A stretch of 64,000 nt of DNA from an uncultured Prevotella sp. (GTDB taxonomy: Bacteria; Bacteroidota; Bacteroidia; Bacteroidales; Bacteroidaceae): NCBI GenBank assembly GCA_902800365.1, contig CADCEF010000022.1:1-64000 (forward strand), written 5' to 3'. How positions within the stretch are numbered: the first letter of the stretch is position 1; the number at the start of each line of letters is the position of its first letter. The notes beneath the pieces are model-generated. The model did not search any database. It was not told the DNA's origin and worked only from the letters and a program-made list of their open reading frames with translations. The translations under genes and the position numbers were made by a program. Shown here in pieces: positions 25,438 to 38,513 of the stretch.

Positions 25438-26712
25438 ATGAAAAAGATGATGATGACGTTCGCAACCGTCCTTTGCTGCGTAGCCACATTCATTCTATCA
25501 TCGTGTAATACTAACGATGACATTCCTGTAAACAATGATGATACAGAACAGTTGGCCGATTATACCATTATTTATTATGCCAATGGTGGCGGAAATGCTG
25601 ATGAGTATCAAATGCCGATGATAGGCGACTTCTACGGTGCCAGCGCTGAAGCATATGAGTGGGTGAATGTGGTGGTACAATATCAGTACTCTTCTGCAGA
25701 GAATATGAAAAAACAGAGCTTATTCCAGGACGAGTTCTGCGATGAATGGGGCAGCAAGACGGTTCGCTGGGCTATAGATCCTCAAAAGAATCTGTCATCA
25801 CAAATGGGAGACCAGGAAAATATCTATGGTACCGACAATGCCGACTGTACCTGCCCTGACTCGCTCACCAACTTTATCAACTGGGCTGCCAAGAACTATC
25901 CTGCTAAGAACTACATGTTGATTCTTAACGATCATAGTAACGGCTATACGCCTGACGACGAGCTAGCCGGACACTTTACAGCCAAAAGTTTGAAACGCGC
26001 CATTGCTAACGCTAACGTGCGCTTACAGACCATCTATATGCAGTCAAGCCTGATGAATAATCTGGAGTATCAGTTTGAGCTGAAAGACCTATGCGACTAT
26101 ATGATGGCCTCAACATACGTGATGCCAGACGACGTTGGCACACTTGGTCTGATGGTCGAAATACTTAATGCGTTTTACAACGATATAGAAGCGGGGTTGT
26201 CGACATATTGTAGTATCAATGTGGAGACTAGTGAATACGGTTTTGATCCAGAAACACCTATTTATACCGACCTCACAGTAACCCGTACGGCCAATCTTGA
26301 CAAACTGGGCGAGATGATGCGAGAGTTTACCGATCGCCTTTGCGACACCTACACCAACGGGACAGAACAGCAGAAACAGCTTATCGACAACTGCACAAAG
26401 CAAGCCGTAAAGATAGACGCCACACAGCCTTCCTACGATGCAACCAAATATATGGCAAGCATCATGAACGCACTGCCTGAGGTTTACGACGATGATTTTG
26501 TCCAGAAAATGGCCGATACTATCAATAGTTGTATTCTTGCCCAGAACTTCAGCAGCTATCTAATCAACCACAATTATATAGTTGACTATAGTGTGCTGCT
26601 TGGCGTTGAGGGTTCACTTGCCCCTTGGAAATCAACCTTCGATGACACATACGGGCAGTTGGAGTTCGACCGCCTTGTTGGTTGGAGCCGTTGGATCAAG
26701 CTCAACTTTTAG
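25438..26712 (+). CDS. clostripain-like (peptidase C11) lipoprotein, probably catalytically inactive
   Basis: 424 aa with a lipoprotein signal (FILSSC, Cys23). The C11 fold is recognisable: YTIIYYANGGGNADEY near the start, LILNDHSNG at residues 161-169 in place of the usual DHGSG, and the strand-helix that normally reads DACLM. Here it is QSSLM (202-206), so the nucleophile Cys is replaced by Ser204 (codon AGC). The general-base His166 remains. It is likely a pseudoenzyme, a binding protein, or possibly a serine variant. Last gene of the operon and convergent with the peptide-export locus. Confidence 0.8.
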   Translation: MKKMMMTFATVLCCVATFILSSCNTNDDIPVNNDDTEQLADYTIIYYANGGGNADEYQMPMIGDFYGASAEAYEWVNVVVQYQYSSAENMKKQSLFQDEFCDEWGSKTVRWAIDPQKNLSSQMGDQENIYGTDNADCTCPDSLTNFINWAAKNYPAKNYMLILNDHSNGYTPDDELAGHFTAKSLKRAIANANVRLQTIYMQSSLMNNLEYQFELKDLCDYMMASTYVMPDDVGTLGLMVEILNAFYNDIEAGLSTYCSINVETSEYGFDPETPIYTDLTVTRTANLDKLGEMMREFTDRLCDTYTNGTEQQKQLIDNCTKQAVKIDATQPSYDATKYMASIMNALPEVYDDDFVQKMADTINSCILAQNFSSYLINHNYIVDYSVLLGVEGSLAPWKSTFDDTYGQLEFDRLVGWSRWIKLNF

Positions 26713-26852
26713 CAACCTAACATAGCATGTCCGTCGGCATCACCATAGCTGTAGAAACACTTGAAAAGATGCTATAAGGAATGTTTCGTTTGGTTCCGCT
26801 CCCAATCGAGCAAGAACTGATGCTATTTTCTATTTTAGAGAAAGAAAATAAA

Positions 26853-28310
26853 TTATCGCTTATTATGGGATATAGTTTGGCGACGCTGATAATCGTAAAG
26901 AGTTAAGCGGCGGAGGTGATAGTAAGCGAGCCAGTAGTTCTGGAGCGATGAAATCTGATTTTGGCGGGCAGTCTGCCAATGGCTCTGGGCTATGGAGAGG
27001 CTGTAGGCATCGGCTTGGGCCTTGATGAAGCGTTGGAGAGTCTGGGCATAGGCATCCTCGGCGATGGTCAGGGCTTCGCGGGCAGTCTCTACGATGGTCT
27101 GACGCTCGTTGAATTCAGCAACGGTCAGGGCTACATCGAGTTCGGTATCTCGGGCTATTTCTTGTTCGGCACGCTCAGCAGTCTCCACTGTGCTGCGGGC
27201 AGCGAGCCAGGCATTCTTACGTTTTCCCCAGTCTTTCAGGGGTATGGAGAGTGTGATGGTAGCTTTGTCCTGTGAAAGCAGATGGCGATAGGCATCTACA
27301 AACTCGTCTGCCACTTGGTTCAAACCCACAGAGGCATCGAGGCTAACACTCAGATTCTTCTCCACTCGGGCACGCTCGGCATCACGCCGGGCTTCGGTAA
27401 CGGCCTTTCGTGAAGAGAGGTATTGCGGGTTGTTCTCTCTGGCATACTGGATAGCCTCTGCTGCATCGATGTGTAGACTCTGCATGACGGTGGGGATGAC
27501 CAATTCTATGTCGGTTGTGCGTTCCATGCCGAGATAGATAGCCAATTCTTGTGCTGCTCTTTGTCGTGAGATGCGAGCATTGGCCAGTGTAGTACGGGCA
27601 TTGGTTTTCTCGAGTTCCAAGATACTCAACTCGGCCTTGGAGATGCTGGCAATCTTAAACCTCCGTTGGGCAATGGCATAGATGGTATCGCACGAGGCCA
27701 GATACTCCTCAGCCATGCGCAACTGGTCCTGAGCCAGAGCCAGCGTAAAGAACTTGGAAACAGCCTTCTCGCTAATGGTCTCAATGCCATAAGTGAGATT
27801 TTTCTCGGCCAGCGTCAACTTCAGCGGTTCTATCTGCTTCGCCCATTTCAAGGGATTATAGAACATCAGTTCCTGTTTGTAACCGACGGCAATGGGGACA
27901 GACATAAACTGTGTCTGGTTTTGGTCACCGAAGGTTCTCAGGTAGCCCAACTGCGTGGAACCGTAGAATTGTCCGCCCCAGCGTTCCATCGTCTGGGTGG
28001 CTGAGATACCAGCCTGCGAATAGAGCATACGTTGCTGACGATACACGTCAATGTCTTCCATCGAGAGATAGCGCTGAGTCATATAGCGTTCATACATGAC
28101 GGGCGTTGAATTGAGCGAGAACTGGGGCTTTCTGGTAGCCTGCCACGATAGGTACTGATAGCGAGAGGCATTATAGGTACTCTGGTATTTCTGTGCTGCC
28201 AAAGTACTGTCTGTAGCCAGCCTGACCGTGCGGTCAAGGTCGAGCGTCACCTTCTGCTGAGCCGAAGCAGAGAATATCACCAATAGAGCGAGATAAACAA
28301 TTCGTCTCAT
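26853..28310 (-). CDS. TolC-type outer-membrane efflux protein
   Basis: 485 aa. An N-terminal signal peptide (IVYLALLVIFSASA) is followed by two outer-membrane efflux protein repeats rich in long alpha helices. It should form the outer-membrane duct for the exporters encoded just upstream. It is the last gene of the peptide-export operon, 3 nt after the lipoprotein adaptor. Downstream is a 140-bp gap to the convergent C11 gene with no clear terminator. Confidence 0.9.
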   Translation of the reverse strand: MRRIVYLALLVIFSASAQQKVTLDLDRTVRLATDSTLAAQKYQSTYNASRYQYLSWQATRKPQFSLNSTPVMYERYMTQRYLSMEDIDVYRQQRMLYSQAGISATQTMERWGGQFYGSTQLGYLRTFGDQNQTQFMSVPIAVGYKQELMFYNPLKWAKQIEPLKLTLAEKNLTYGIETISEKAVSKFFTLALAQDQLRMAEEYLASCDTIYAIAQRRFKIASISKAELSILELEKTNARTTLANARISRQRAAQELAIYLGMERTTDIELVIPTVMQSLHIDAAEAIQYARENNPQYLSSRKAVTEARRDAERARVEKNLSVSLDASVGLNQVADEFVDAYRHLLSQDKATITLSIPLKDWGKRKNAWLAARSTVETAERAEQEIARDTELDVALTVAEFNERQTIVETAREALTIAEDAYAQTLQRFIKAQADAYSLSIAQSHWQTARQNQISSLQNYWLAYYHLRRLTLYDYQRRQTISHNKR

Positions 28311-28313
28311 GGG

Positions 28314-29192
28314 CTACTTCAGTATTACTTCCACGTTCATCCCGTCAAAGAGCCCCTGCGCGTCTGAGAGTCTGGCGCGGAGGGTGACAGCTCCCTGTTC
28401 ATCAACGACCGGGTTGATGACATTGACGACGGCAGTGTATTGTTTACCCTTGTCGGCCACGGGAATGACGTTGACACCCATACCTATCTTATATCTGCAG
28501 AGGTCAGCCTCCATCACGCGGAACTCCACTTCCATGTCGCCAGTGGCAATCACCCGGCATACTGTCTGTCCTGGCTGTGCCAACTGATGGGCCTGTATCT
28601 TGAGGTTTGCCGCCACACCGTCGAAGGGCGCTGTGAGCACACCGCTCCTTAACTCATGCTGGGCAACTGCTAGCGCAGTGCGAGCCGTGGCAAGCTGACT
28701 CTTGGACAAAGCGTAGCCCGACTTCACGTCAGCGTTATGCTTGACGTCGGCAGGTATGGCAGAAGCCTTGTCGGGGTCATAGCCCTGCGAGATAATCACA
28801 TCCTGCATCTGCAAGTAAGCCTGTTCAATCTGTAGTTGTGCCTGTTCGACAGCTCGCTGCTGCTTTTCGATGGCGTTACGCAACTTGAACAGGTCGAGCT
28901 GTGCCAGTACCTGACCACGACGTACCCTCTGACCATTCCTGACCAACACCCTTTCTATGGGCAATGCCGTCTCAAAGGAGAGATCGGCGAAGCGGGCGGT
29001 CACCACCTTGCCCATAGTCTTGATAAATCCCGCTGGGGCAAGGCTGTCGAGAGAGGTTATAGGTGTGGGCGCACTCGTAGTGACCGAGTCCATCACCGTC
29101 TGGATCGAGTCATTGGCAGGCGAACTCTGCCCTGTTTGTCCACAACAGGCAGTCAAGACTAACGCTGCTGTTATGATGATTGTCTTTCTCAT
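28314..29192 (-). CDS. periplasmic adaptor lipoprotein (membrane fusion protein)
   Basis: 292 aa. Lipoprotein signal LVLTAC (Cys16), then a beta-barrel/lipoyl half (RVLVRNGQRVRRGQVLAQLD), a coiled hairpin rich in Gln/Glu, the second lipoyl half (LTAPFDGVAANL) and a final barrel domain. The type pairs with RND or ABC exporters and a TolC channel. Within this operon it is a second adaptor besides the HlyD-like one at 33468, and lies directly before the TolC gene, so it probably bridges to the outer membrane. Confidence 0.88.
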   Translation of the reverse strand: MRKTIIITAALVLTACCGQTGQSSPANDSIQTVMDSVTTSAPTPITSLDSLAPAGFIKTMGKVVTARFADLSFETALPIERVLVRNGQRVRRGQVLAQLDLFKLRNAIEKQQRAVEQAQLQIEQAYLQMQDVIISQGYDPDKASAIPADVKHNADVKSGYALSKSQLATARTALAVAQHELRSGVLTAPFDGVAANLKIQAHQLAQPGQTVCRVIATGDMEVEFRVMEADLCRYKIGMGVNVIPVADKGKQYTAVVNVINPVVDEQGAVTLRARLSDAQGLFDGMNVEVILK

Positions 29193-29201
29193 ATCGCGTA
29201 A

Positions 29202-31370
29202 TTAAAGTTGTCGTAAACTCATTTCATAGAAGAAGCCCTTGCGCTCCATCAGTTCGTCGAAGGTGCCCTGCTCTACAATCTTGCCTTTGTCGAGCACGAT
29301 GATCCGGTCGCAGTGACGAATGGTCGATAGCCGGTGGGCTATTACCACGCGGGTACACTTCAGTTTGTCGAGGTTGTCGCTGACGGCCTTCTGCGAGATA
29401 TTGTCGAGTGCCGATGTCGCCTCATCGAAGAAGATGATGTTAGGCTTCGAGATGAGGGCACGGGCGATGAGGATGCGCTGCTTCTGTCCTCCACTAAAGC
29501 CACTGCCACCTTCTGTGACGATGGTGTGAAGCCCCATCGGCATCTTTCTGACATCTTCTTCAAGACAAGCCATGCGCAGGGCCTCCCACGCATCGTCATG
29601 GGTGGCCCACGGAGCGGTGATGGTGATGTTGTGGAACAGGTCGCCCGTAAACAAGCTGCCGCTCTGCAGACAACAGCCGATCTTCCTGCGCAGCGAAGCC
29701 TTATCCACCTTCGCCAAGTCATAGTTGTCGTAGGAGATACCACCAGTCAGCGGTTGTTCGAATCCAAGCATCAGGCGCATCAACGTTGATTTGCCGCAGC
29801 CCGACTTACCCACAATGCCCACATATTCGCCCGGCTTAATCTTCAGCGACAGGTCGTCGATAACCATTGGCCCGTCTTCCTGATAGCGGAACGACACACC
29901 ACTCAGTTCGATACTTCCAAGGAGTGCATTAACCTGCGGTGCTTTCTCTTCCATTTCAGGTACGGCTTCCAAGATAGGCCTTACGCTCTCCAACAGCGGT
30001 TTAATCTGTGCCAGACTCGGTACCACAGTGTTCAGCTGGGTTATCGAGGCGGTTATCATGCCAAAAGCAGAACTGAAGGCAATATAGTCGGAAGAGGAAA
30101 CCCCGTTCGACAATGTGCTCCAGAAGAGGAGCATCGTGCCGCCAAACCCCAGTAAGGCAGTGAGTGCAGGACAAAGCAGACGGGCGAAATCTGGATTATA
30201 GACCAGATAGGTAGCTTTGCTATAGTTGTCGAGCCAACGGATAAATGCACGGTTCTCACTACCAGTAAGTTTCAGTTTGTGGATACCCGCAAAGAGATTG
30301 TATTCCAGACCGCTCAGCTTCGCCATTTCCTCAGTATATTTCTTCTGAACCCCGACAATGCGAAGATAGTACAAAAAGATGACGAGCACCTGCAGGGCAA
30401 TGATACCGAGCGCAGGCCAGAGCAATGCACCACCATAAATATAGACCTGCACCAGATAGATGATACTGAGCACGGCTGAGAGCAACGCGCCGACGATGCT
30501 CTCATTGCAGAGCGAGGCCACTGTCGTTATATTCTGTATCTTTGCCGTCAGTTCACCACTGGAATGATGGCTGAAGAAAGTGGGGCTCAAGAGGAACGTG
30601 CGGGCCACAACGGCATTCTGCACGTGCAGCTCTATGATGTGCTGCAAACGGATGATATAGAGATTTCTTGTCAGCGTAAGCAATAGAGAGCCTATGGTAA
30701 TACCGATAAGAAGCCCGGTAATAGGCAACAGATCGGAGGAGTCGCCGGTAGGGATAACCGTGTCGAAGATCAGTTTGTTGGCCATCGGGGTAAACATGCC
30801 AAGCAGCACCACTACAAGGGCACACACCGTAAGCAGCACGGCATTAGGCCCTGACACCACACGCCACGTGAACCTGACAAGGTCCTTAATCTTCAGCGCT
30901 CTTAGCGGCAAGGCTTTGGTGAAAGTGATGGCCGTCGGTTCCAGCTCTTCAGTCATCTCGCGTTTACCCACCTGCCTGACTATACCGTCCTCTTTGCGGT
31001 ATTGGTAGCCCAGCCCGGTCTTCGTCGGGGTCAGCGCCACCAGTCTTCCGTCCTTGGTATAGCCCAACAGTGGCCCGACACACTCACGCCACCATTCTCC
31101 AGTCAGATGAATATCGCGCATCATGATACCACGCGGACGAAGGATGCCTGTCAGTTGTTCCTCAACCGATAACACATCATCATAATCCAGCTGGTAGTCT
31201 GTGATGCCGAGTGCCTCAAGCACCTGTCGCAACGCACTTTGGTCGTTCTGAGGCACCACGCGCCTGCCTCCCTGAAGTCCCAGGCGCTGATGGGTTTTCT
31301 CGTTCACCTCGGCCATTGCTGCTTGCTCAGCTGCCCTGCGCTTATTAATCTGATTAATATAGATTTCCAT
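29202..31370 (-). CDS. NHLP-type ABC exporter without peptidase (second ABC protein)
   Basis: 722 aa. A non-catalytic N-terminal region of about 180 residues (the place of a peptidase in C39 exporters, but lacking the Cys/His signature), six transmembrane helices, then an ATPase: Walker A GKSGCGKST near residue 520, signature SGGQKQR, and DEATSAL. It resembles the NHLM_micro_ABC2 type (TIGR03797) that accompanies a peptidase-bearing ABC protein in NHLP peptide systems. It follows that gene by 2 nt, which suggests a heterodimeric exporter. Confidence 0.88.
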   Translation of the reverse strand: MEIYINQINKRRAAEQAAMAEVNEKTHQRLGLQGGRRVVPQNDQSALRQVLEALGITDYQLDYDDVLSVEEQLTGILRPRGIMMRDIHLTGEWWRECVGPLLGYTKDGRLVALTPTKTGLGYQYRKEDGIVRQVGKREMTEELEPTAITFTKALPLRALKIKDLVRFTWRVVSGPNAVLLTVCALVVVLLGMFTPMANKLIFDTVIPTGDSSDLLPITGLLIGITIGSLLLTLTRNLYIIRLQHIIELHVQNAVVARTFLLSPTFFSHHSSGELTAKIQNITTVASLCNESIVGALLSAVLSIIYLVQVYIYGGALLWPALGIIALQVLVIFLYYLRIVGVQKKYTEEMAKLSGLEYNLFAGIHKLKLTGSENRAFIRWLDNYSKATYLVYNPDFARLLCPALTALLGFGGTMLLFWSTLSNGVSSSDYIAFSSAFGMITASITQLNTVVPSLAQIKPLLESVRPILEAVPEMEEKAPQVNALLGSIELSGVSFRYQEDGPMVIDDLSLKIKPGEYVGIVGKSGCGKSTLMRLMLGFEQPLTGGISYDNYDLAKVDKASLRRKIGCCLQSGSLFTGDLFHNITITAPWATHDDAWEALRMACLEEDVRKMPMGLHTIVTEGGSGFSGGQKQRILIARALISKPNIIFFDEATSALDNISQKAVSDNLDKLKCTRVVIAHRLSTIRHCDRIIVLDKGKIVEQGTFDELMERKGFFYEMSLRQL

Positions 31371-31372
31371 GG

Positions 31373-33466
31373 TTATTCGCTCTTCATCAGTTTCTGATAG
31401 AATCCTTCCTGCGCAATGAGTTCCTCATGTCGTCCGCGTTGTAGGATCTTACCCTGGTCCATGACGATAATCTCGTCGCAGTCACGGATGGTACTCAGTC
31501 GGTGTGCCACGATAATCTGCGCCGGTCCCATGCTCCGGATGCGCTTCATGACCTCATCCTCGGTCTTCGGGTCTAAGGCACTCGTAGCCTCATCCATGAT
31601 GAGCACGATCGGCTCTCTGGCCAGTGCAGTAGCTATTTCAAAGCGCTGTCGCTGACCGCCGCTGAAATTCTGTCCACCCTTGACAATCTTCGTATCAAAG
31701 CCTTCTGGACGACTCACGATGTCAGCACGTATCTCTGCATCGTTGCAGGCCATCATCAGCGTGAAATCCTCGATGCTGGGGTCCCACATGCGGATATTCT
31801 GTGCGATGGTGTCATCAAAGAGCACCACGTTCTGGTCAATCACCGCCACAGAGTTCGTCAGCTCTTCATCGGGGATGCTCTCGATGGGTCTGCCGTCAAA
31901 AAGGATTTCCCCACTCCACGGTTTATAGAGACCGCTGATCAGTTTTGCCAGTGTCGATTTACCACAGCCGCTGGGGCCTACCAGAGCCACAGAATGACCA
32001 GGCTCCACCCTGAGGTTGAAGTCCTCAATGAGCGGAGGCTGCAAAGGTGAGTAACCGAAGGTGACATGCTTCATTTCCAAAAGACCGCCAAGTTTCCCTT
32101 GCTGTATCTCCTGTTTCGAGTCCCGATGGTCTTCGGGATATTTCATCACGTCCTCCACACGCTCCATCTGGCTTCGCATCTCCACAATTTTCTGAGAGCC
32201 GTTCACCAGCTCGTTCACTGGTGCCAGAAACGACCCCATGAAACCCTGGAAGGCCATGAGCATACCCACAGTCAGATCGCCCTGAAGAATGAGGTAGGCA
32301 CCAAGCACGAGTACGGCCACAGAGCAAAGCGCGTTGGCCAGCACAGGCAACAGAGCCATCTGCGCTTGTTGCTTGTCGGCGTTGGCGTTCACGTTGAACT
32401 TATGCGCCCACAGACCACTCCAATACTTGAAGAAGCCTGTCTCAGCACCTGCCGCCTTGATGCTCTCCATGTTGTCGATACATGAGACAGTGGCAGAGAA
32501 GTACTGACCCTCACTTTGTTCCATCGAACGGATGAGGTTAATGCGAAAATTGGCGAAATAATGAACGATAGCCAGGTTGACACCCGCAGCCACGAATCCT
32601 ATGATTGTCAGCCAGAAGGAATACGAGAACATCAGAAACAGGTAGAAGGAGTTGGTAATCTCCTGGTTCAGATGCATACGCTGCTGCAAATCGCCCACAT
32701 GGCGCATGGCGAAATACGACATGGGCAGGCGCAGCAAGTGGCGCAGATAGTCCTTGTTGCTTTTTAATGCCAGCGCACCTGCCACACGCTTGGTATAGCG
32801 GCTTTGCAGCAGTACCACGAAGAACTGGAAAACGGCCAGTGCGCCCATGCCTATGAAGAACCACTTAACCCAATCGGCATTCTTGCCCGACAGAATCTCG
32901 TCGAGGAAGATGCGGGTGAACAGCGGCGACAGTAGTGCCACGAATGCACCCATCAGCGCAAAGGAGAAGGTGAGCCAGAAAGCCTCGCTCACACCGTTGA
33001 GATTCTTCTTCATATAAGAAAGGATGCTGGTCTGCTGTCCGCCCTTCTCAAACTTCTCCGTCGGCTCAAAGGTCAGGCACACGCCCGTGTAGTGCTTGCG
33101 GAACTCCTCCATCGGCCATTTCACGGGTCCTATGCCAGGATCGTTGATGCAGGCGCGCCCCTTACGGTCGAAGCCCCGGAACACGACGAAGTGCTCGAAA
33201 TTCCAGTGGATGATGGCAGGCTGCTTGCCTTCCAGCGCCTCGGGCGACATACGGAAGCCCTTGGCATCAAGACCGTAGTTACGGGCAGCCTGCAGAATCA
33301 TCTTCGCCGATGAGCCGTCGCGCGACACACCACAGGCTGCACGTACCTCTTCCAGTGGCAACCACTTGCCGTAATGCGCTAAGATCATCGTCAACGATGC
33401 AGCACCGCACTCCACGACCTCCATCTGCATCACCTGCGGCACCTTAGCCAATTTACTCTTGCCCAT
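31373..33466 (-). CDS. NHLP-type peptidase-containing ABC exporter (C39)
   Basis: 697 aa. The N-terminal C39 peptidase domain (1-130) has its catalytic set: Cys20 in VECGAASL, His92 in EHFVV, Asp109 in INDPG. Six transmembrane helices follow, then the ATPase with Walker A GPSGCGKST near residue 495, SGGQRQR and DEATSAL. This enzyme class cuts GG leaders and exports the cargo through the inner membrane. The two GG-leader genes at 34548 and 34860 are the obvious substrates. Confidence 0.93.
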   Translation of the reverse strand: MGKSKLAKVPQVMQMEVVECGAASLTMILAHYGKWLPLEEVRAACGVSRDGSSAKMILQAARNYGLDAKGFRMSPEALEGKQPAIIHWNFEHFVVFRGFDRKGRACINDPGIGPVKWPMEEFRKHYTGVCLTFEPTEKFEKGGQQTSILSYMKKNLNGVSEAFWLTFSFALMGAFVALLSPLFTRIFLDEILSGKNADWVKWFFIGMGALAVFQFFVVLLQSRYTKRVAGALALKSNKDYLRHLLRLPMSYFAMRHVGDLQQRMHLNQEITNSFYLFLMFSYSFWLTIIGFVAAGVNLAIVHYFANFRINLIRSMEQSEGQYFSATVSCIDNMESIKAAGAETGFFKYWSGLWAHKFNVNANADKQQAQMALLPVLANALCSVAVLVLGAYLILQGDLTVGMLMAFQGFMGSFLAPVNELVNGSQKIVEMRSQMERVEDVMKYPEDHRDSKQEIQQGKLGGLLEMKHVTFGYSPLQPPLIEDFNLRVEPGHSVALVGPSGCGKSTLAKLISGLYKPWSGEILFDGRPIESIPDEELTNSVAVIDQNVVLFDDTIAQNIRMWDPSIEDFTLMMACNDAEIRADIVSRPEGFDTKIVKGGQNFSGGQRQRFEIATALAREPIVLIMDEATSALDPKTEDEVMKRIRSMGPAQIIVAHRLSTIRDCDEIIVMDQGKILQRGRHEELIAQEGFYQKLMKSE

Positions 33467-33467
33467 A

Positions 33468-34304
33468 TTAATTGCCTGCTATCGTTTGGATGGAATTGTC
33501 CAGTGTGCCGACAAGGACTCGCCAGACGGGCTTCTTCCGTGTGATAATCTGGATGTTGCATAAGGCACCGTTGCCCACCTTCACATGGCGGCTCTTCTCA
33601 CGACTCCATACCAGATTACCGTTCTGTTCGTCAAACGTTACGCGCACCTCGTACGCCGCCTGTCCGTCCTTGATGAATGCCGCCAGCGGGTCGAGTTTCA
33701 CACGGCTCACAATCTCCTGTCGCGTGGTCGGATACTGTTCGATGCCAACCACCTGTCCGTAGGCATATCCCCAGTTCTCGCGCTCCAAATTGGCAGGCGT
33801 GGCCTGCACCTGCTGACCGATCTTCAGTTTGCGCAGATCGTTGTAGGTCACATAGCAGAGCATCTCGCGGCCTGCCATCTGCTGCGTCTGCGGTAGCAGC
33901 CACGCCACGGGTTCGCCTGCCTTGAACTGTGCGCCAAGGGGCAGCGTCTGTATCAACACGCCGTCGCGCGGCACCCTGACAGCTGTCGTCGAAAGGGCAT
34001 TGCGAATCTCCATCACTGCCACACCATTGGCAACGGTGGCACCGTGACTCACCAACAAACGGCTAACGGCTCCATCATAGGGCAAACTAATAGGCGTGGC
34101 CTCTCCAAAAGGAAATACCACGCCCTGCGCTGTAACCTTGTAATTGATGGTTCCGAAGATGCACCAATAGATGACCACCACCATCATCGCCACCATGGCG
34201 GCAATCACAATCCGAATCCTCGGAGATGCCACTCGCGCCATCTCCTTGGCTTCGCTATGGTCGTCGAGTGCCTCCAGTGCCTCCTTATTGAATATCTCTG
34301 CCAT
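33468..34304 (-). CDS. NHLP-type HlyD family secretion protein
   Basis: 278 aa. A cytoplasmic N-terminus, one transmembrane helix (about residues 30-50), then a periplasmic lipoyl/barrel part without the long coiled hairpin of classic HlyD. Sequence and order fit the NHLM_micro_HlyD type (TIGR03794), which always lies next to the C39 and ABC2 exporters. It has its own promoter element (34361-34354) and starts the exporter block. Confidence 0.88.
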   Translation of the reverse strand: MAEIFNKEALEALDDHSEAKEMARVASPRIRIVIAAMVAMMVVVIYWCIFGTINYKVTAQGVVFPFGEATPISLPYDGAVSRLLVSHGATVANGVAVMEIRNALSTTAVRVPRDGVLIQTLPLGAQFKAGEPVAWLLPQTQQMAGREMLCYVTYNDLRKLKIGQQVQATPANLERENWGYAYGQVVGIEQYPTTRQEIVSRVKLDPLAAFIKDGQAAYEVRVTFDEQNGNLVWSREKSRHVKVGNGALCNIQIITRKKPVWRVLVGTLDNSIQTIAGN

Positions 34305-34353
34305 AATCTTAAATTTGAAAGTGACAATAATGGTATAGTCTTAATTTCGGTGG

Positions 34354-34361
34354 CAAAAATA
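34354..34361 (-). promoter_or_regulatory. promoter of the exporter genes
   Basis: The minus strand reads TATTTTTG about 50 nt before the HlyD start. It is part of a 27-nt block (34352-34378) that recurs with one mismatch upstream of the small membrane protein gene (35384-35410). Confidence 0.65.
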
Positions 34362-34416
34362 CAAAAATAATTGGAAATAAAAAAGAAAATCGTGTGTTTT
34401 TTCACTCCTTTGCTCG

Positions 34417-34548
34417 TTAATACGCAGCCAGTTCTGCATAGAAACGGCTCACTTCTTTCTGCATGCCCTCTGGCGAGGCGCCGTGATCACGGGGGCTGAC
34501 CCCAGTGATCACGGAGATGGAATAGCAGAGGTAGATAATGGGCCTCAT
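34417..34548 (-). CDS. 43-aa ORF coupled to precursor peptide 1
   Basis: An ATG at 34548 overlaps the stop of the precursor gene in the arrangement TGATG, and the frame runs 43 codons to TAA (34419-34417). It begins MRPIIYLCYSISVITG, continues with a polar segment (SPRDHGASPEG) and ends in a helix (EVSRFYAELAAY). It could be a third small protein (with one Cys), a fragment of a lost gene, or only a frame over the hairpin at 34481-34514. No family recognised. Confidence 0.45.
   Translation of the reverse strand: MRPIIYLCYSISVITGVSPRDHGASPEGMQKEVSRFYAELAAY
34481..34514. promoter_or_regulatory. strong 34-nt hairpin between precursor genes and exporter genes
   Basis: CCGTGATCAC and GTGATCACGG form a 10-bp stem, extended by one mismatch and four G-C pairs to a CTGA tetraloop. 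There is no T-run. In this position it could partly stop transcription or protect the upstream RNA, raising precursor over exporter levels. The arms are also palindromes, so a DNA-binding role is possible. Confidence 0.65.
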
Positions 34549-34790
34549 CACATTATAGGATCGCTATGGTATAGGTCTTCAACAGGATTGGATTCGGTTA
34601 TAGGAGTTCTATTTAGAGGATTTAAGTGACTTATATTAGGAACGCCTCCTGCGGCATTGTCGAGGTCGTCATCGTCGAGTGGCCATGCGCCGGCCTCCAC
34701 GAGTTCGTCCTTCAGCGCCTTCACTTCCTCAGCCAGTTGCTTCAACTGTTGCTTCTTCTGCTCAATCTGTTCTGCTGTTAATGTTGCCAT
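34548..34790 (-). CDS. GG-leader precursor peptide 1
   Basis: 80 aa. The leader (1-49) is a Lys/Gln/Glu-rich helix followed by GAWPLDDDDLDNAAGG, an NHLP-type double-glycine site after the acidic helix. Cleavage after Gly49 would release a 31-residue core, VPNISHLNPLNRTPITES then a short acidic end with no Cys, so lanthionine or disulfide formation is ruled out. The leader is nearly the same as that of the neighbouring precursor; the cores are unrelated. Confidence 0.85.
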   Translation of the reverse strand: MATLTAEQIEQKKQQLKQLAEEVKALKDELVEAGAWPLDDDDLDNAAGGVPNISHLNPLNRTPITESNPVEDLYHSDPIM

Positions 34791-34859
34791 AATAATAATT
34801 ATTAAATGTTTGTTTCAGAATTTGTTGCATTCACTTGTTGAATCTACCAGAGAAACCAT

Positions 34860-35045
34860 TTATTCTCCGGCTCTCTTGATTAAATCAAATAGAGGTATTC
34901 CTCCTGCCGCCTGGTCGAGGTCGGCTTCGTCGAGTGGCCATGCGCCGGCCTCCTGCAATTCCTTGATGATTGCATTCTTCTCCTCAGAGAGCTGCTTCAA
35001 CTGCTGCTTCTTCTGCTCAATCTGTTCTGCTGTCATTGTTGCCAT
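34860..35045 (-). CDS. GG-leader precursor peptide 2
   Basis: 61 aa. Same leader plan as precursor 1 (starts MATMTAEQIEQKKQQLKQL; GG at 48-49 preceded by LDEADLDQAA). The predicted core is only 12 residues, IPLFDLIKRAGE, amphipathic and without Cys. It is 69 bp upstream of precursor 1 and clearly a duplicate of it. Such a short core fits a signalling peptide better than a typical bacteriocin, but that is inference. Confidence 0.85.
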   Translation of the reverse strand: MATMTAEQIEQKKQQLKQLSEEKNAIIKELQEAGAWPLDEADLDQAAGGIPLFDLIKRAGE

Positions 35046-35080
35046 ATTACTAAATATTTAATGGGTTATACCTTATTACA

Positions 35081-35356
35081 TTATTTGATTGTAGGATCCT
35101 GTACCTTGCGCTGGTGAGAGCGCCGCTCGCGCTGGCCGCCCGTCACCACCTCCAACTCTTCATTGAGTACGTTGTTCTCGTCCTGAAGCTGCTCGATTTC
35201 GTCTTTCAGTTTCAGGTTCTCACGGATGAAAGCAGAGAAGTTGACCAGCAACTCCTGATTGCGCCAGTGGTAGTAGAAGAGCACAACGACCAATGCCACT
35301 ATGGCCAGCGCCACAATAGTCGAGATGATGATTGAAATGATAACTGTCGTATCCAT
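35081..35356 (-). CDS. small membrane protein with coiled coil, head of the peptide operon
   Basis: 91 aa from ATG 35356; the longer frame would include the promoter. One transmembrane helix (residues 5-27, rich in Ile/Val), then YYHWRNQ and a coiled-coil stretch (ENLKLKDEIEQLQDENNVLNEEL trimmed to the heptad core), ending in a basic tail with RERRSHQRK. Not an export substrate by its look, as no GG leader is present; it might be an immunity or scaffold protein. No family recognised. First gene after a consensus promoter. Confidence 0.65.
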   Translation of the reverse strand: MDTTVIISIIISTIVALAIVALVVVLFYYHWRNQELLVNFSAFIRENLKLKDEIEQLQDENNVLNEELEVVTGGQRERRSHQRKVQDPTIK

Positions 35357-35385
35357 AATTACCGTTCTAGTTTTGATTTCTGGGG

Positions 35386-35393
35386 CAAAGATA
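35386..35393 (-). promoter_or_regulatory. promoter of the peptide operon
   Basis: TATCTTTG on the minus strand, about 30 nt before the ATG at 35356, inside the 27-nt block shared with the exporter promoter. Confidence 0.7.
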
Positions 35394-35472
35394 CAAAAAT
35401 AATTGGAAATCGTAAAGAAAAAACAATATTTTTTAGGCTTTTCATTTAATATAGAAACCCCACTAACCATAA

Positions 35473-35655
35473 AGGGAGTTTCTTGCCGATGGGGATCATA
35501 TCATAGGGGGTTCCACGCTGACCGACACCTACGAGCAATTGGCTTTCGACAAAGTCGTGGGCTGGAACCGCTGGCTGCGCCTAAACAACCAGCATCCCAA
35601 CTTGTTCTGCCCGATATCCAGAAATGGTGTAAAAAAGAGGATGTGCCTATTTTGA
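35473..35655 (+). pseudogene. remnant of a clostripain-like (C11) 3' end
   Basis: On the plus strand 35509-35589 reads GSTLTDTYEQLAFDKVVGWN then RWLRLNN, matching the end of the C11 protein at 25438 (DDTYGQLEFDRLVGWSRW then IKLNF). The frame is open from 35473 to a stop at 35653 but has no start codon and none of the catalytic part. DNA identity to the intact gene is moderate, so it derives from a diverged paralogue rather than a recent copy. Confidence 0.8.
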
Positions 35656-35666
35656 CACATCCTCTT
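35631..35666 (-). terminator. terminator of the ABC importer gene
   Basis: AAGAGGATGTG and CACATCCTCTT form a perfect 11-bp stem with a 10-nt loop; read on the minus strand it is followed by a run of T. It lies 124 nt after the stop of the 907-aa importer. Confidence 0.85.
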
Positions 35667-35789
35667 GTTCAATACCCATGCAAGAGGTCAGTTCACCAAA
35701 TAAAGCGATCAAGGGGACTGGTCCATGATTGCTCGTTTCGGGATGATTCCAAGAAAATCCACGAATTTTTCTCTCATTTGTAGCGACTT

Positions 35790-38513
35790 TTACTTTATGT
35801 CAATGCGGAGATTATTGCCGTCTACATTTATATCTCGACAGAAGTTGCGCAGAATAGTCACGGCCAGATCATCACGTTCAGCATCGAAGGCATCGCTGCC
35901 GATGGCCTGCTGACTCTTTATGCTCAATTGCAAAGAGTCGTCACGTTCTGTATACGCCAGTGTGAGAACCGTATTAGGGCTGATGACCCTTCCGCCAGAA
36001 CCCAGGATTGCAAGTGATTCGTCTATCACATGAAGCACATTGGTAGTCCTCTGGTGCGACAGGTTGTATTGATGACAGAACTGTTCCATCTGCGACATCA
36101 TGGCAAACCAGTCGAAGTACTCACTCTCAATGATGAATGTCGTCTCATGTATCTGCTGGATGAATTGCTTGGTGCGTTCACGCTGCGGGTTATCGAAGAG
36201 TTGGTCAGGTGTACCGTCCTCGTATACCACACCATCAGCGAAGAAGAGTACTCGGCTACTAACCTGTCGGGCAAAACGCATCTCATGGGTTACCACAAGC
36301 ATCGTCATGCCTTGACGTGCCAAACGTGTCATAACGCCAAGAACCTCGTTCACCATAGTAGGATCAAGGGCCGAAGTGGGTTCATCAAAGAGCAGTATCT
36401 CTGGATCCATGGCCAACGCACGGGCAATGGCTATACGCTGTTTCTGTCCACCAGACAGTTGATCTGGCAAGGCTTCTGCGCGTTCGGCCATTCCAACCAT
36501 CTGCAGCAATTCCAAGGCTCGCTTTTCTGCATCCTCACGGCTCTTACCAAGTAGCTGCATGGGTGCCAGACATAAATTATCAAGCACCGTCATGCCGTTG
36601 AACAGGTTGAACGACTGGAACACCATGCCCATACGGCGACGAAGCAGAGGCACATCGGCATCGGGCGACAATATATCTTGCCCGTTAATAAGAATGCTGC
36701 CACTGGTGGGCTGCTCAAGCAGATTCAGGCATCGCAGGAACGTACTCTTTCCCGTACCCGACGGACCGATAATGGATATTACCTCGCCCTTATGCACATC
36801 AAGGTTAATATCGCGCAGCACATCAAACGAACCATAACTCTTCTTCATGCCAGAGATACGTATGATAGGAGAGTCGGAATCAGAGGATGTGATAGTATGA
36901 GAAGCAGAGGAAACTAAAGTGTGAGATTGTTTGCGGCGAATGAACAGCCATACACATCCACCTATAACAATAAGTATAGCCACAATCCATGCCCATTGGA
37001 TCTCTTCATCAGCAGTAGATGATGGCTGTAAAGGATTGGTTAAGATATCTGCCTCGCCTTTTCGTGTAACCATCACGATGTGTGAATCAATATATCCATC
37101 GGAAAACAGTACCTGTTTCTGTCGCTCCTCAGTACAGCTGATTGAGCCCATAGCCATGTCGGCCTTACCAGTCTGTACAGCAGGTATCTGCGCGGCAAAA
37201 TCCATAACAAGAAACTCCAGTTGCCAATTACGCCGGTTGGCCCACTCTGTCAATAATTCCGGTTCCATACCCGAAGGTTTACCTGAACAGATGAAGTTTA
37301 ACGGTGGCATTACCGGGTTGGTAGCAACTCGCAGAGTGCGCCCCGTACCTTGCTGTTGAGGGAGTGTCATAGCCGTTGGGTCTTCAGACTTCTGCCAACG
37401 ATCGTATATCTTCTGATAGGTTCCATCACGACGTATGTCAGCCAAAAAGCTATTAAAGTCCTGTTGCAACTCAGCATTGCCCAGTTTGAAACAGGCTCCT
37501 ATCGGAATCGGAGCGAGCTCTGAATTAACAGAATCAACCTTTGACATCAGATCTTTACTAAATATCAATGTAAGACTTTCATCGCCTACCACATCAACTT
37601 TGCCATTCTCTAAAGCTGCCAACATATCGGTAAGGGTAGCCATGCGCAATATGTTGGCATCGGGAGCCATATTGGTTACAGCAATATCTTGTATGCTGCC
37701 GATAATTACAGCTACGTTTTTCCCTTTAAGTGCCTTGAATACAGGTGGAACGGTTGATTGAGCGGTAGCATTAGTAGCGTCCGTTTCGTTGGTCGACAGC
37801 AATCCTGCAACTCCAAGCAACGCCAATGCCACAGCAGCAGCGATGGTCTTCATTCGCTTTCGATAAACAAGACTCTGAAGCAACATTCCGATGAGCCACG
37901 CCATTAGGAAATATATTATGGCCGTAACAATGAGTGGGAAGAAGGCATCGAATGTTCGAGAGCGTATCAGGTCGGAAGCTCGCGTCATGTCGGCCACAGC
38001 TATATAACCAACTATACTCGTGCCTTTAAGCAGACTTATCACCTCACCCTGATATACAGGCAACACCGACTTTATTACCTGAGGCATAACAATCCTAAAG
38101 AATGTCTGCCTCTGCGTAAAACCTAATGCCAGTCCTGCCTCGGTCTGGCCTCGGTCTATTCCCTGAATAGCAGTTCGAAGCATCTCACTGATGTAGGCAG
38201 CAGTGTTCATGGCAAAAGTAACAATGGCCACCACTATACCCGTAGCATCTACCGGCGCCATCACCACATAATACATAATCATAAGCAACACCAGCACTGG
38301 TGTGCCACGCATAAGGTCGATATACACCTTGGCAATTTGTCGTAACCATGCTCGGTGGTTCATACGCATCCAGCACACCAGTCCACCCAGCATTGTGCCT
38401 AATAATGCTGCGCAGATTGTGATAATAAGCGTCACCTGCAGACCGTCGAGAATCATTCTATATCGATCCTCGGCTATCAAATTATTATAAAAACTCTCTA
38501 TTATACTATTCAT
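35790..38513 (-). CDS. single-chain polar amino-acid ABC importer (permease, permuted binding domain, ATPase)
   Basis: 907 aa. Residues 1-215: HisM/GlnP-type permease with the EAA loop (EAGLALGF at 125-132). 223-239: another membrane helix. 256-375: the C-terminal half of a family-3 binding protein (LKGKNVAVIIGS through DGTYQKIYDRW). 390-485: the N-terminal half (GRTLRVATNPVMPP through VLFSDGYIDS). 506-525: membrane helix. 550-795: GlnQ-like ATPase (Walker A GPSGTGKS 583-590, LSGGQ, DEPTSALD). 800-907: unassigned tail. A whole importer in one polypeptide, with the binding lobes in swapped order. Confidence 0.88.
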   Translation of the reverse strand: MNSIIESFYNNLIAEDRYRMILDGLQVTLIITICAALLGTMLGGLVCWMRMNHRAWLRQIAKVYIDLMRGTPVLVLLMIMYYVVMAPVDATGIVVAIVTFAMNTAAYISEMLRTAIQGIDRGQTEAGLALGFTQRQTFFRIVMPQVIKSVLPVYQGEVISLLKGTSIVGYIAVADMTRASDLIRSRTFDAFFPLIVTAIIYFLMAWLIGMLLQSLVYRKRMKTIAAAVALALLGVAGLLSTNETDATNATAQSTVPPVFKALKGKNVAVIIGSIQDIAVTNMAPDANILRMATLTDMLAALENGKVDVVGDESLTLIFSKDLMSKVDSVNSELAPIPIGACFKLGNAELQQDFNSFLADIRRDGTYQKIYDRWQKSEDPTAMTLPQQQGTGRTLRVATNPVMPPLNFICSGKPSGMEPELLTEWANRRNWQLEFLVMDFAAQIPAVQTGKADMAMGSISCTEERQKQVLFSDGYIDSHIVMVTRKGEADILTNPLQPSSTADEEIQWAWIVAILIVIGGCVWLFIRRKQSHTLVSSASHTITSSDSDSPIIRISGMKKSYGSFDVLRDINLDVHKGEVISIIGPSGTGKSTFLRCLNLLEQPTSGSILINGQDILSPDADVPLLRRRMGMVFQSFNLFNGMTVLDNLCLAPMQLLGKSREDAEKRALELLQMVGMAERAEALPDQLSGGQKQRIAIARALAMDPEILLFDEPTSALDPTMVNEVLGVMTRLARQGMTMLVVTHEMRFARQVSSRVLFFADGVVYEDGTPDQLFDNPQRERTKQFIQQIHETTFIIESEYFDWFAMMSQMEQFCHQYNLSHQRTTNVLHVIDESLAILGSGGRVISPNTVLTLAYTERDDSLQLSIKSQQAIGSDAFDAERDDLAVTILRNFCRDINVDGNNLRIDIK

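What the first reader, a model, noticed from the sequence alone, without database searches (positions are those of the whole stretch)
26853..35356. Self-contained NHLP-type peptide secretion locus with no modification enzyme
Seen: two duplicated precursors with nearly the same GG leaders but unrelated cores of 31 and 12 residues; a C39 exporter with intact Cys20/His92/Asp109; an ABC2-type exporter without peptidase; an NHLP HlyD; a second lipoprotein adaptor; a TolC channel; a small coiled-coil membrane protein. NHLP loci usually carry enzymes that modify the core; none is seen here, and neither core has Cys. Inference: the locus secretes short unmodified peptides, perhaps signals or bacteriocins.
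Basis: partly seen in the sequence, partly recalled or inferred. Interest (0 to 1): 0.85.

Follow-up and report, generated by a model that had tools for sequence, protein, structure and literature searches.

The report
Prevotella short-peptide exporter with shuffled precursors
A gut Prevotella gene cluster appears to cut and export a set of very short peptides; the part first read as a small membrane protein looks like a third peptide precursor tethered to the membrane, and relatives swap the exported part between carriers and sometimes carry peptide-modifying enzymes.

Summary
In detail: two GG-leader precursors, a C39 ABC exporter with Cys20/His92/Asp109, a peptidase-less ABC exporter, a short HlyD, a lipoprotein adaptor and a TolC lie together, with no modification enzyme among the neighbours scanned. 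Four corrections. (1) The 'coiled-coil membrane protein' (35081-35356) ends in a C39 recognition motif, VLNEELEVVTGG|QRERRSHQRKVQDPTIK, and is probably a membrane-anchored third precursor: of 58 window ORFs scanned only it and the two precursors carry the motif; one relative has the identical 17-residue tail on the ordinary soluble leader, another the same motif before a different tail. (2) 'No modification enzyme' does not extend to the family: relatives have radical SAM or GT8 genes beside exporter or precursors, so the exporter looks like a hub and this copy a stripped version. (3) The precursors match no NHLP or Nif11 model; only the exporter resembles the NHLP cassette, below curated cut-offs. 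(4) This C39 gene alone of 46 compared lacks 16 membrane-domain residues and may be impaired. Across 47 precursors leaders are 63% identical and cores no more alike than shuffled ones, yet some cores recur between genomes. Whether the cargo are signals or bacteriocins is unresolved. New variant of a known kind.

The parts
35084..35134 (-). core QRERRSHQRKVQDPTIK (17 aa) of the TM/coiled-coil precursor
   Evidence: identical 17 aa (54/54 nt with stop) after a soluble leader in L187
35135..35356 (-). membrane-anchored leader of the putative third precursor: TM helix, coiled coil, VLNEELEVVTGG
   Evidence: C39 recognition pattern in only 3 of 58 window ORFs; 5 of 20000 shuffles of the protein carry it; homologues with the same motif in L092, L103, L221
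34899..35045 (-). leader of precursor 1 (49 aa)
34863..34898 (-). core of precursor 1, IPLFDLIKRAGE (12 aa)
   Evidence: identical in L053, 10/12 in L187
34644..34790 (-). leader of precursor 2 (49 aa)
34551..34643 (-). core of precursor 2 (31 aa)
   Evidence: homologous core on an 80%-identical leader in L092
34481..34514 (-). RNA hairpin between precursors and exporter genes
   Evidence: 71-nt stretch folds at -26.1 kcal/mol, z -4.8; motif also in L053 and L187
33468..34304 (-). short HlyD-type inner-membrane adaptor (278 aa)
   Evidence: TIGR03794 106.4 bits, best stretch covers profile 253-416 of 421
31373..33466 (-). C39 peptidase / ABC exporter (697 aa) lacking 16 residues of the membrane domain after residue 273
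   Evidence: TIGR03796, PF03412, catalytic residues, deletion
29202..31370 (-). second ABC exporter half without peptidase (722 aa)
   Evidence: TIGR03797 702.6 bits
28314..29192 (-). lipoprotein periplasmic adaptor (292 aa)
   Evidence: TIGR01730; lipobox LTAC read by eye in the translation
26853..28310 (-). TolC-type outer-membrane channel (485 aa)
   Evidence: PF02321 1.8e-22

Best explanation
This is a type I, C39-processed short-peptide secretion locus of Prevotella built on the NHLP-type exporter cassette. It exports a small set of linear, Cys-free peptides after cutting behind Gly-Gly. Three precursors, not two, stand at its head: two with a soluble 49-residue leader and one whose leader is a transmembrane helix plus coiled coil that would hold the core at the cytoplasmic face beside the C39 domain. 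The C39 exporter, with the second ABC half, cuts the cores and passes them to a short HlyD; a lipoprotein adaptor and TolC carry them out. Leaders are conserved carriers, while cores are exchanged between leaders, loci and species by recombination at the leader/core junction. In relatives the same exporter or leader type sits beside radical SAM or GT8 enzymes, so it is a general outlet to which modification enzymes can be added; here none was found. Shown: anatomy, motif, core swap, recurring cores, neighbours. Inferred: cleavage site, membrane topology, export, absence of modification, and function as inter-bacterial signals or toxins.
For: Genes and families; catalytic residues. The motif pattern hits 3 of 58 window ORFs and fits the published C39 rule, L(-12), E(-8), L(-7), V(-4) (PMC6363468 passages), with Val at -12 in CC and Asp at -8 in the two precursors. 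Leader swap: L187 carries the CC core, 54/54 nt identical, behind the soluble leader, identity starting at the codons for ELEVVTGG. One 520-bp segment shared with L187 (502/520) begins at the GG motif of the CC gene and ends at the leader/core junction of precursor 2, where the cores differ. The L221 homologue has the same motif and another core. 5 of 140 distinct small ORFs with a GG motif carry a TM segment before it; all five lie beside an exporter (three of them are near-identical copies of CC). Leaders average 63% identity and cores 11%, equal to shuffled (11%), over 1035 pairs from 46 of 47 precursors; 12 pairs share a core at 60% or more, 11 of them between genomes. No modification enzyme in the window proteins scanned.
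Against: The C39 exporter of this genome lacks 16 membrane-domain residues that the other 45 of 46 homologues compared keep, and it is the only C39 gene found in this genome at E 1e-5 (genome 92.8% complete), so this copy may not export. CC look-alikes without a GG tail occur away from exporters (L222, L223, L228), each after an AraC-type gene, as do the GG-tailed CCs of L103 and L221; the TM/coiled-coil part may thus be a partner of a regulator. The L187 chimera could be a deletion product rather than a functional swap. Relatives do carry modification enzymes. No cleavage, export or activity data exist.
Confidence: 0.57

Rival explanations
1. The TM/coiled-coil protein is not a precursor but a membrane tether or regulator partner: its GG-like tail docks on the C39 domain, or is cut to report exporter activity, and no peptide is released for use outside.
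For: Similar TM/coiled-coil proteins without a GG tail exist away from exporters, each right after an AraC-type (HTH_18) gene (L222, L223, L228); in L103 and L221 an AraC-type gene also precedes the GG-tailed CC.
Against: The identical tail is carried by an ordinary soluble leader in L187. In L221 the motif is kept and the tail changed, as expected of a core. The window CC has no AraC gene beside it.
Confidence: 0.28
2. The cores are modified in trans by enzymes encoded elsewhere in the genome, so the products are RiPPs after all.
For: Radical SAM and GT8 genes accompany related precursors, in G103 and G291 away from any exporter; precursors are dispersed over contigs in 5 of 9 genomes.
Against: No GT8 or radical SAM tag beside the precursor genes of this genome (window, L005, L006). 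In L088 the leader type differs and 4 of 5 cores hold Cys; the window cores have no Cys and no Tyr-Gly. The rest of the genome was not searched for such enzymes.
Confidence: 0.15
3. The locus is decaying and exports nothing in this strain.
For: 16-residue deletion in the C39 membrane domain; a split C39 gene in the relative L092; a degenerate C11-peptidase gene on one side and a C11 remnant on the other.
Against: The deletion is in frame and the catalytic residues are intact; the other genes are open; the CC gene differs from that of L103 by one synonymous change. A binning or assembly artefact cannot be excluded.
Confidence: 0.25
4. The cargo are bacteriocins (class II microcin-like) rather than signals.
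For: GG-leader unmodified antimicrobial peptides with an ABC transporter/peptidase are known in Bacteroidales (bacteroidetocins, PMC6671954 passages); they can inhibit their own producer and so need no immunity gene (PMC10352776 passage); cores are hypervariable.
Against: Cores are short (median 18.5), near-neutral (mean net charge +0.28) and 39 of 46 lack Cys; no immunity gene recognised among scanned neighbours; about 11 different precursors in one array (L087).
Confidence: 0.35

Closest known systems
NHLP/Nif11 three-gene exporter cassette (TIGR03794, TIGR03796, TIGR03797)
   Same: C39-ABC, peptidase-less ABC and HlyD in one operon
   Different: all three models score below the curated cut-off; HlyD is short; leaders match neither NHLP nor Nif11 models; extra lipoprotein adaptor and TolC
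Synechococcus elongatus PteB / EbfG1-4 (PMC4997328, passages seen)
   Same: C39 exporter secreting small GG proteins; the TIGR03797 search also rings in the S. elongatus control genome
   Different: a cyanobacterial system that promotes biofilm; HlyD is not mentioned in the text (0 occurrences); cargo sizes were not compared here
Bacteroidetocins (PMC6671954, passages seen)
   Same: unmodified GG peptides of Bacteroidales with an ABC transporter/peptidase
   Different: 15-16 aa leaders, 42-48 aa cores with Cys; here 49- or 74-aa leaders and 12-, 17- and 31-aa Cys-free cores
Bacteroidales RiPP clusters with PCAT and radical SAM (PMC10352776, passages seen)
   Same: PCAT plus GG precursors, some with MFP and outer-membrane protein
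   Different: a survey for clusters with modification enzymes; none found here
TMcins (PMC13252029, abstract, outline and passages seen)
   Same: a precursor integrated in the membrane by a TM helix
   Different: Gram-positive; the TM helix stays in the mature toxin and an S2P-type protease cuts; here the TM helix would be in the discarded leader, cut by C39

Membership tests
NHLP bacteriocin export cassette | TIGR03796 C39-ABC over curated cut-off | tested here: not met
   851.4 vs 853.3 bits, missed by 2 bits
NHLP bacteriocin export cassette | TIGR03797 ABC2 over curated cut-off | tested here: not met
   702.6 vs 709.4; 0 of 150 genus genomes pass
NHLP bacteriocin export cassette | TIGR03794 HlyD over curated cut-off | tested here: not met
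   106.4 vs 156.2
NHLP bacteriocin export cassette | three-gene operon of C39-ABC, ABC2 and HlyD | tested here: met
NHLP/Nif11 precursor family | nitrile-hydratase-like or Nif11-like leader | tested here: not met
   no such NCBIfam hit at E up to 1; leaders 49 aa against 66-85 aa in PMC4289311 (passage)
C39-processed GG peptides (PCAT substrates) | hydrophobic -12, acidic -8, Leu -7, hydrophobic -4, Gly-Gly | tested here: met
   pre1, pre2 and CC; rule from PMC6363468 passages
C39-processed GG peptides (PCAT substrates) | cleavage after GG and export | not testable with these tools
   needs protease assay and mass spectrometry
RiPP | modification enzyme with the precursor | tested here: not met
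   none among window proteins scanned; present in some relatives
Bacteroidetocins | 15-16 aa leader and Cys-containing core of 42-48 aa | tested here: not met
   cores 12, 17 and 31 aa without Cys; definition from PMC6671954 passages
TMcins | TM helix in mature product, TmcP (DUF3267) protease | tested here: not met
   TM lies before the GG; no DUF3267 hit in scanned window proteins

The most novel reading that the evidence does not exclude
Prevotella owns a modular peptide-export economy: one C39 hub exports cores that are shuffled between interchangeable carriers, soluble leaders and membrane-anchored coiled-coil leaders, with optional radical SAM or GT8 (perhaps tyrosine-glycosylating) modules and, at many loci, a HATPase/STAS partner-switch. 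The membrane-anchored leader cut by C39 would be a new kind of carrier.
Probability: 0.4. Interest if true: 0.78.

Novelty: new variant of a known kind. Interest (0 to 1): 0.6.

Why it matters
Few secreted peptides of rumen and gut Prevotella are characterised (my knowledge). The locus and its relatives give a defined, testable set of cores, including a natural swap of the same core between a soluble and a membrane-anchored leader. That makes three questions directly testable: what a C39 exporter needs in a leader, whether membrane tethering can replace it, and how strains diversify and share a secreted-peptide repertoire.

Tried and rejected
Rejected or not borne out: 'NHLP precursor' (no model match). 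'Coiled-coil accessory protein' as the main reading, though it stays a rival. Phage carriage of the leader: 600 pattern stretches in viral contigs, none encoding a relative. The TTTG-N17-22-TAnnTTTG promoter pattern (recalled Bacteroidetes consensus): 7 matches in the window against 1.17 expected, none in the locus. Rfam: no match at gathering score in 26000-36500. CC similarity in 43 of 398 genus genomes is mostly weak TM/coiled-coil likeness and is not counted as CC presence. For the radical SAM tag of L019 I first scanned the wrong gene (only a weak HIRAN hit); the tagged ORF is the start of a gene that runs into L020, where Pfam gives Radical_SAM 3.8e-15. SpoIIE-type tags are not enriched at exporters (10 of 29 and 3 of 21 against 7 of 27 loci without exporter), so only STAS/HATPase are counted for the partner-switch. 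The Tyr-Gly pattern (4 of 6 GT8-linked cores against 0 of 41 others) was noticed before it was tested and is exploratory; the cores of L193 and L194 lack it. The GT8 count (5 of 25 against 0 of 67) was made by hand and missed one leader locus; one search recounts it.
Full report
WHAT IS THERE. From the head: a TM/coiled-coil protein ('CC', 35081-35356), precursor 1 (34860-35045), precursor 2 (34548-34790), HlyD, C39-ABC, ABC2, lipoprotein adaptor and TolC. From HlyD to TolC the gaps are 1 to 9 bp; a 243-bp gap with a strong RNA hairpin (-26.1 kcal/mol, z -4.8) parts the precursors from the exporter genes. The exporter proteins resemble the NHLP cassette but each scores below its curated cut-off (851.4 of 853.3, 702.6 of 709.4, 106.4 of 156.2), and the precursors have no leader model among their NCBIfam hits. 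The HlyD is 278 aa against 421 profile positions, its best stretch covering positions 253-416; the lipoprotein adaptor probably supplies the missing reach to TolC (inference).

A THIRD PRECURSOR. CC ends VLNEELEVVTGG|QRERRSHQRKVQDPTIK. This fits the published C39 rule, Leu -12, Glu -8, Leu -7 and Val -4 (PMC6363468, passages), with Val instead of Leu at -12. A pattern for the rule hits 3 of 58 window ORFs, the two precursors and this one; 5 of 20000 shuffles of the protein have it. Three comparisons speak for a precursor. First, L187 (unnamed same-genus genome G269) carries the same 17 residues, 54 of 54 nt with the stop, behind the ordinary soluble leader; identity begins at the codons for ELEVVTGG. 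Second, L221, the exporter locus of the same genome G269, has a 43%-identical protein before HlyD with the same ELEVVTGG and a different tail, KRGPNTRKF. Third, of 140 distinct small ORFs with a GG motif in the held loci, 5 have a TM segment before the GG (window, L064, L092, L103, L221), all beside an exporter; window, L092 and L103 are near-identical. A more distant relative in L087 ends LDEDELGYVAAAG, a variant of the motif. Against this: TM/coiled-coil look-alikes without a GG tail exist away from exporters (L222, L223, L228), each after an AraC-type gene, and AraC-type genes also precede the GG-tailed CC in L103 and L221. So the TM/coiled-coil part may come from, or still serve as, a partner of a regulator. 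The inside-facing topology (charged HWRNQ after the helix) is an inference.

SHUFFLED CORES. The 520-bp segment shared by the window and L187 (502 of 520 identical) starts at the GG motif of the CC gene and ends at the leader/core junction of precursor 2; beyond it the leader on one side and the core on the other differ. Over 47 distinct precursors with this leader (46 with a core of 5 aa or more, 1035 pairs), leaders average 63% identity and cores 11%, the same as shuffled cores. Yet 12 pairs share a core at 60% or more, 11 of them between genomes: IPLFDLIKRAGE is identical in L053, the core of precursor 2 recurs in L092, and the core of the orphan precursor of this genome (C17 start, L005) recurs in L190 and L188. 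Leaving out one core cut by a contig end, core length is 5-40, median 18.5; 39 of 46 lack Cys; mean net charge is +0.28. L087, from a MAG titled uncultured Prevotellaceae RUG13388, has about 11 precursors before HlyD. The exporter genes of window, L053 and L103 are 97% identical in DNA, but the adaptor and TolC genes only 71-72%, which suggests that the head of the locus moved as a block.

DISTRIBUTION. The leader was found in 3 of 150 and, with a profile, 9 of 398 genomes of the genus, own genome included; the two samples overlap. Copies per genome run from 1 to 8, on more than one contig in 5 of the 9. ABC2-type proteins at E up to 1e-120 occur in 25 of 150. The named relatives at 62-96% C39 identity (L084-L112, 29 loci) are Bacteroidales MAGs; 10 of 29 titles name rumen, reticulum or omasum. 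The relatives at 48-50% (L115-L163) are Clostridia (best 80 of at least 550).

MODIFICATION ENZYMES. None among the window proteins scanned (not every ORF of the 64 kb was scanned). In relatives: L088 has two radical SAM proteins after a five-precursor array, one with SPASM over its cut-off, one below. In G103 a radical SAM gene (3.8e-15; start in L019, rest in L020, the gene cut by the contig end) runs divergently from a precursor with the window-type leader and the core IVMPDAYICQQQCSHRD. GT8 genes adjoin precursors with this leader at 5 of 26 loci against 0 of 62 Bacteroidota loci without it (p 0.0017, five doubly fetched loci dropped); in L193 the GT8 is only a fragment, under the Pfam cut-off, and loci differ in length. 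In Clostridia, radical SAM proteins were confirmed in 3 of 5 neighbours scanned (L130, L126, L162 yes; L127, L129 no). L053, whose exporter is 96-99% identical, has a third precursor of the leader type found in L088.

REGULATION. STAS or RsbW-like HATPase genes lie near the exporter in 10 of 29 named Bacteroidota loci, 7 of 21 genus loci and 19 of 49 Clostridia loci, against 1 of 13 peptidase-less exporter loci, 0 of 2 Bacteroides-type loci and 1 of 27 loci without exporter. SpoIIE-type tags do not show this contrast (10 of 29, 3 of 21, 20 of 49, against 1 of 13 and 7 of 27). These are BLAST tags; Pfam confirmed SpoIIE, NMT1, STAS and HATPase in L052, the first two and HATPase in L065, and SpoIIE in L084, L088, L184 and L185. 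The window locus shows none nearby. L089/L052, L100/L055, L105/L082, L106/L057 and L103/L195 look like the same contigs fetched twice, so counts are not independent.

IS THIS COPY WORKING? The window's C39 exporter lacks 16 residues of the ABC membrane domain; 45 of 46 homologues at 60% or more, the window being the 46th, keep them (some are duplicates). It is the only C39 gene found in this genome. The deletion is in frame; whether it is real or an assembly fault is unknown.

KNOWN OR NEW. Papers seen only as abstracts, listings or passages: bacteroidetocins, Bacteroidales RiPP mining with PCAT and GG motifs, cyanobacterial C39 clusters, PteB/EbfG, NHLP mining in anaerobes with no Bacteroidetes entry in its table, and TMcins, whose abstract says known precursors had been characterised as soluble. 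Ten library searches listed no paper that I recognised as describing a GG leader with a transmembrane anchor cut by C39, this leader family, or GT8 beside GG precursors; listings were partly capped and are not proof of absence. Verdict: a new variant of C39/GG peptide secretion.

Noticed in passing
L084:534-5535, L085:2214-8027, L018:9975-11538, L194:4000-7528, L193:384-1087: GT8 glycosyltransferases (plus GT2 and UDP-galactopyranose mutase in L085; only a fragment in L193) adjoin precursors with the window-type leader; 4 of 6 of their cores hold Tyr-Gly against 0 of 41 others: possible glycogenin-like tyrosine glycosylation.
   Followed up: partly
L019:19409-20000 and L020:3-887: A radical SAM gene runs divergently from a precursor with the window-type leader and a two-Cys core in G103.
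   Followed up: partly
L052, L065, L084, L085, L086, L089 and Clostridia loci: RsbW-like HATPase and STAS, often with a SpoIIE phosphatase and NMT1-type binding protein, near the exporter: a partner-switch module.
   Followed up: partly
L222:6979-7515, L223:6697-7029, L228:6863-7201: Small TM/coiled-coil proteins like CC but without a GG tail, each after an AraC-type gene: perhaps an undescribed sensor-regulator pair.
   Followed up: partly
window 25438-26712 (+) and 35509-35613 (+): A C11 clostripain-like gene with the presumed catalytic Cys (position recalled) replaced by Ser and an internal deletion, and the C-terminal remnant of a second one, flank the locus. C11 genes are few (1-5 in each of 8 genomes) yet adjoin precursors in L021, L184 and L185 and lie 3.4 kb off in L196.
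   Followed up: partly
L069 (own genome C15) and L070-L081: A second, peptidase-less version of the double-ABC exporter (about 571-585 aa instead of 700) with HlyD, TolC and adaptor; no convincing GG precursor in the listing.
   Followed up: no
L006 end and L005 start: Contigs C4 and C17 of the own genome share 99 exact bases inside a precursor leader, suggesting an assembly-graph break and possibly further unassembled copies.
   Followed up: no
L055, L082, L099, L102; L058, L095-L097; L054, L056: Other exporter subclades each keep a conserved short core of their own: AQ...RPSW.R, VTA.S.SS...PPY.S, K.VLAGLNTGAKKVP.PEILKTIKV.
   Followed up: no
window 34481-34514; L053:15906-15925; L187:6471-6490: The same GTGATCAC...GGGGTCAG.CCC hairpin lies beside precursors in three genomes; one copy found in the own genome.
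   Followed up: partly
L103:4733-7204, L187:7390-9855: C10 streptopain-like peptidase gene with Spi propeptide near the precursor array in two genomes.
   Followed up: no
L113:1489-7120: A Bacteroides sp. MAG (roe deer colon) has seven GG precursor ORFs with Cys-containing cores near a 51%-identical exporter.
   Followed up: no
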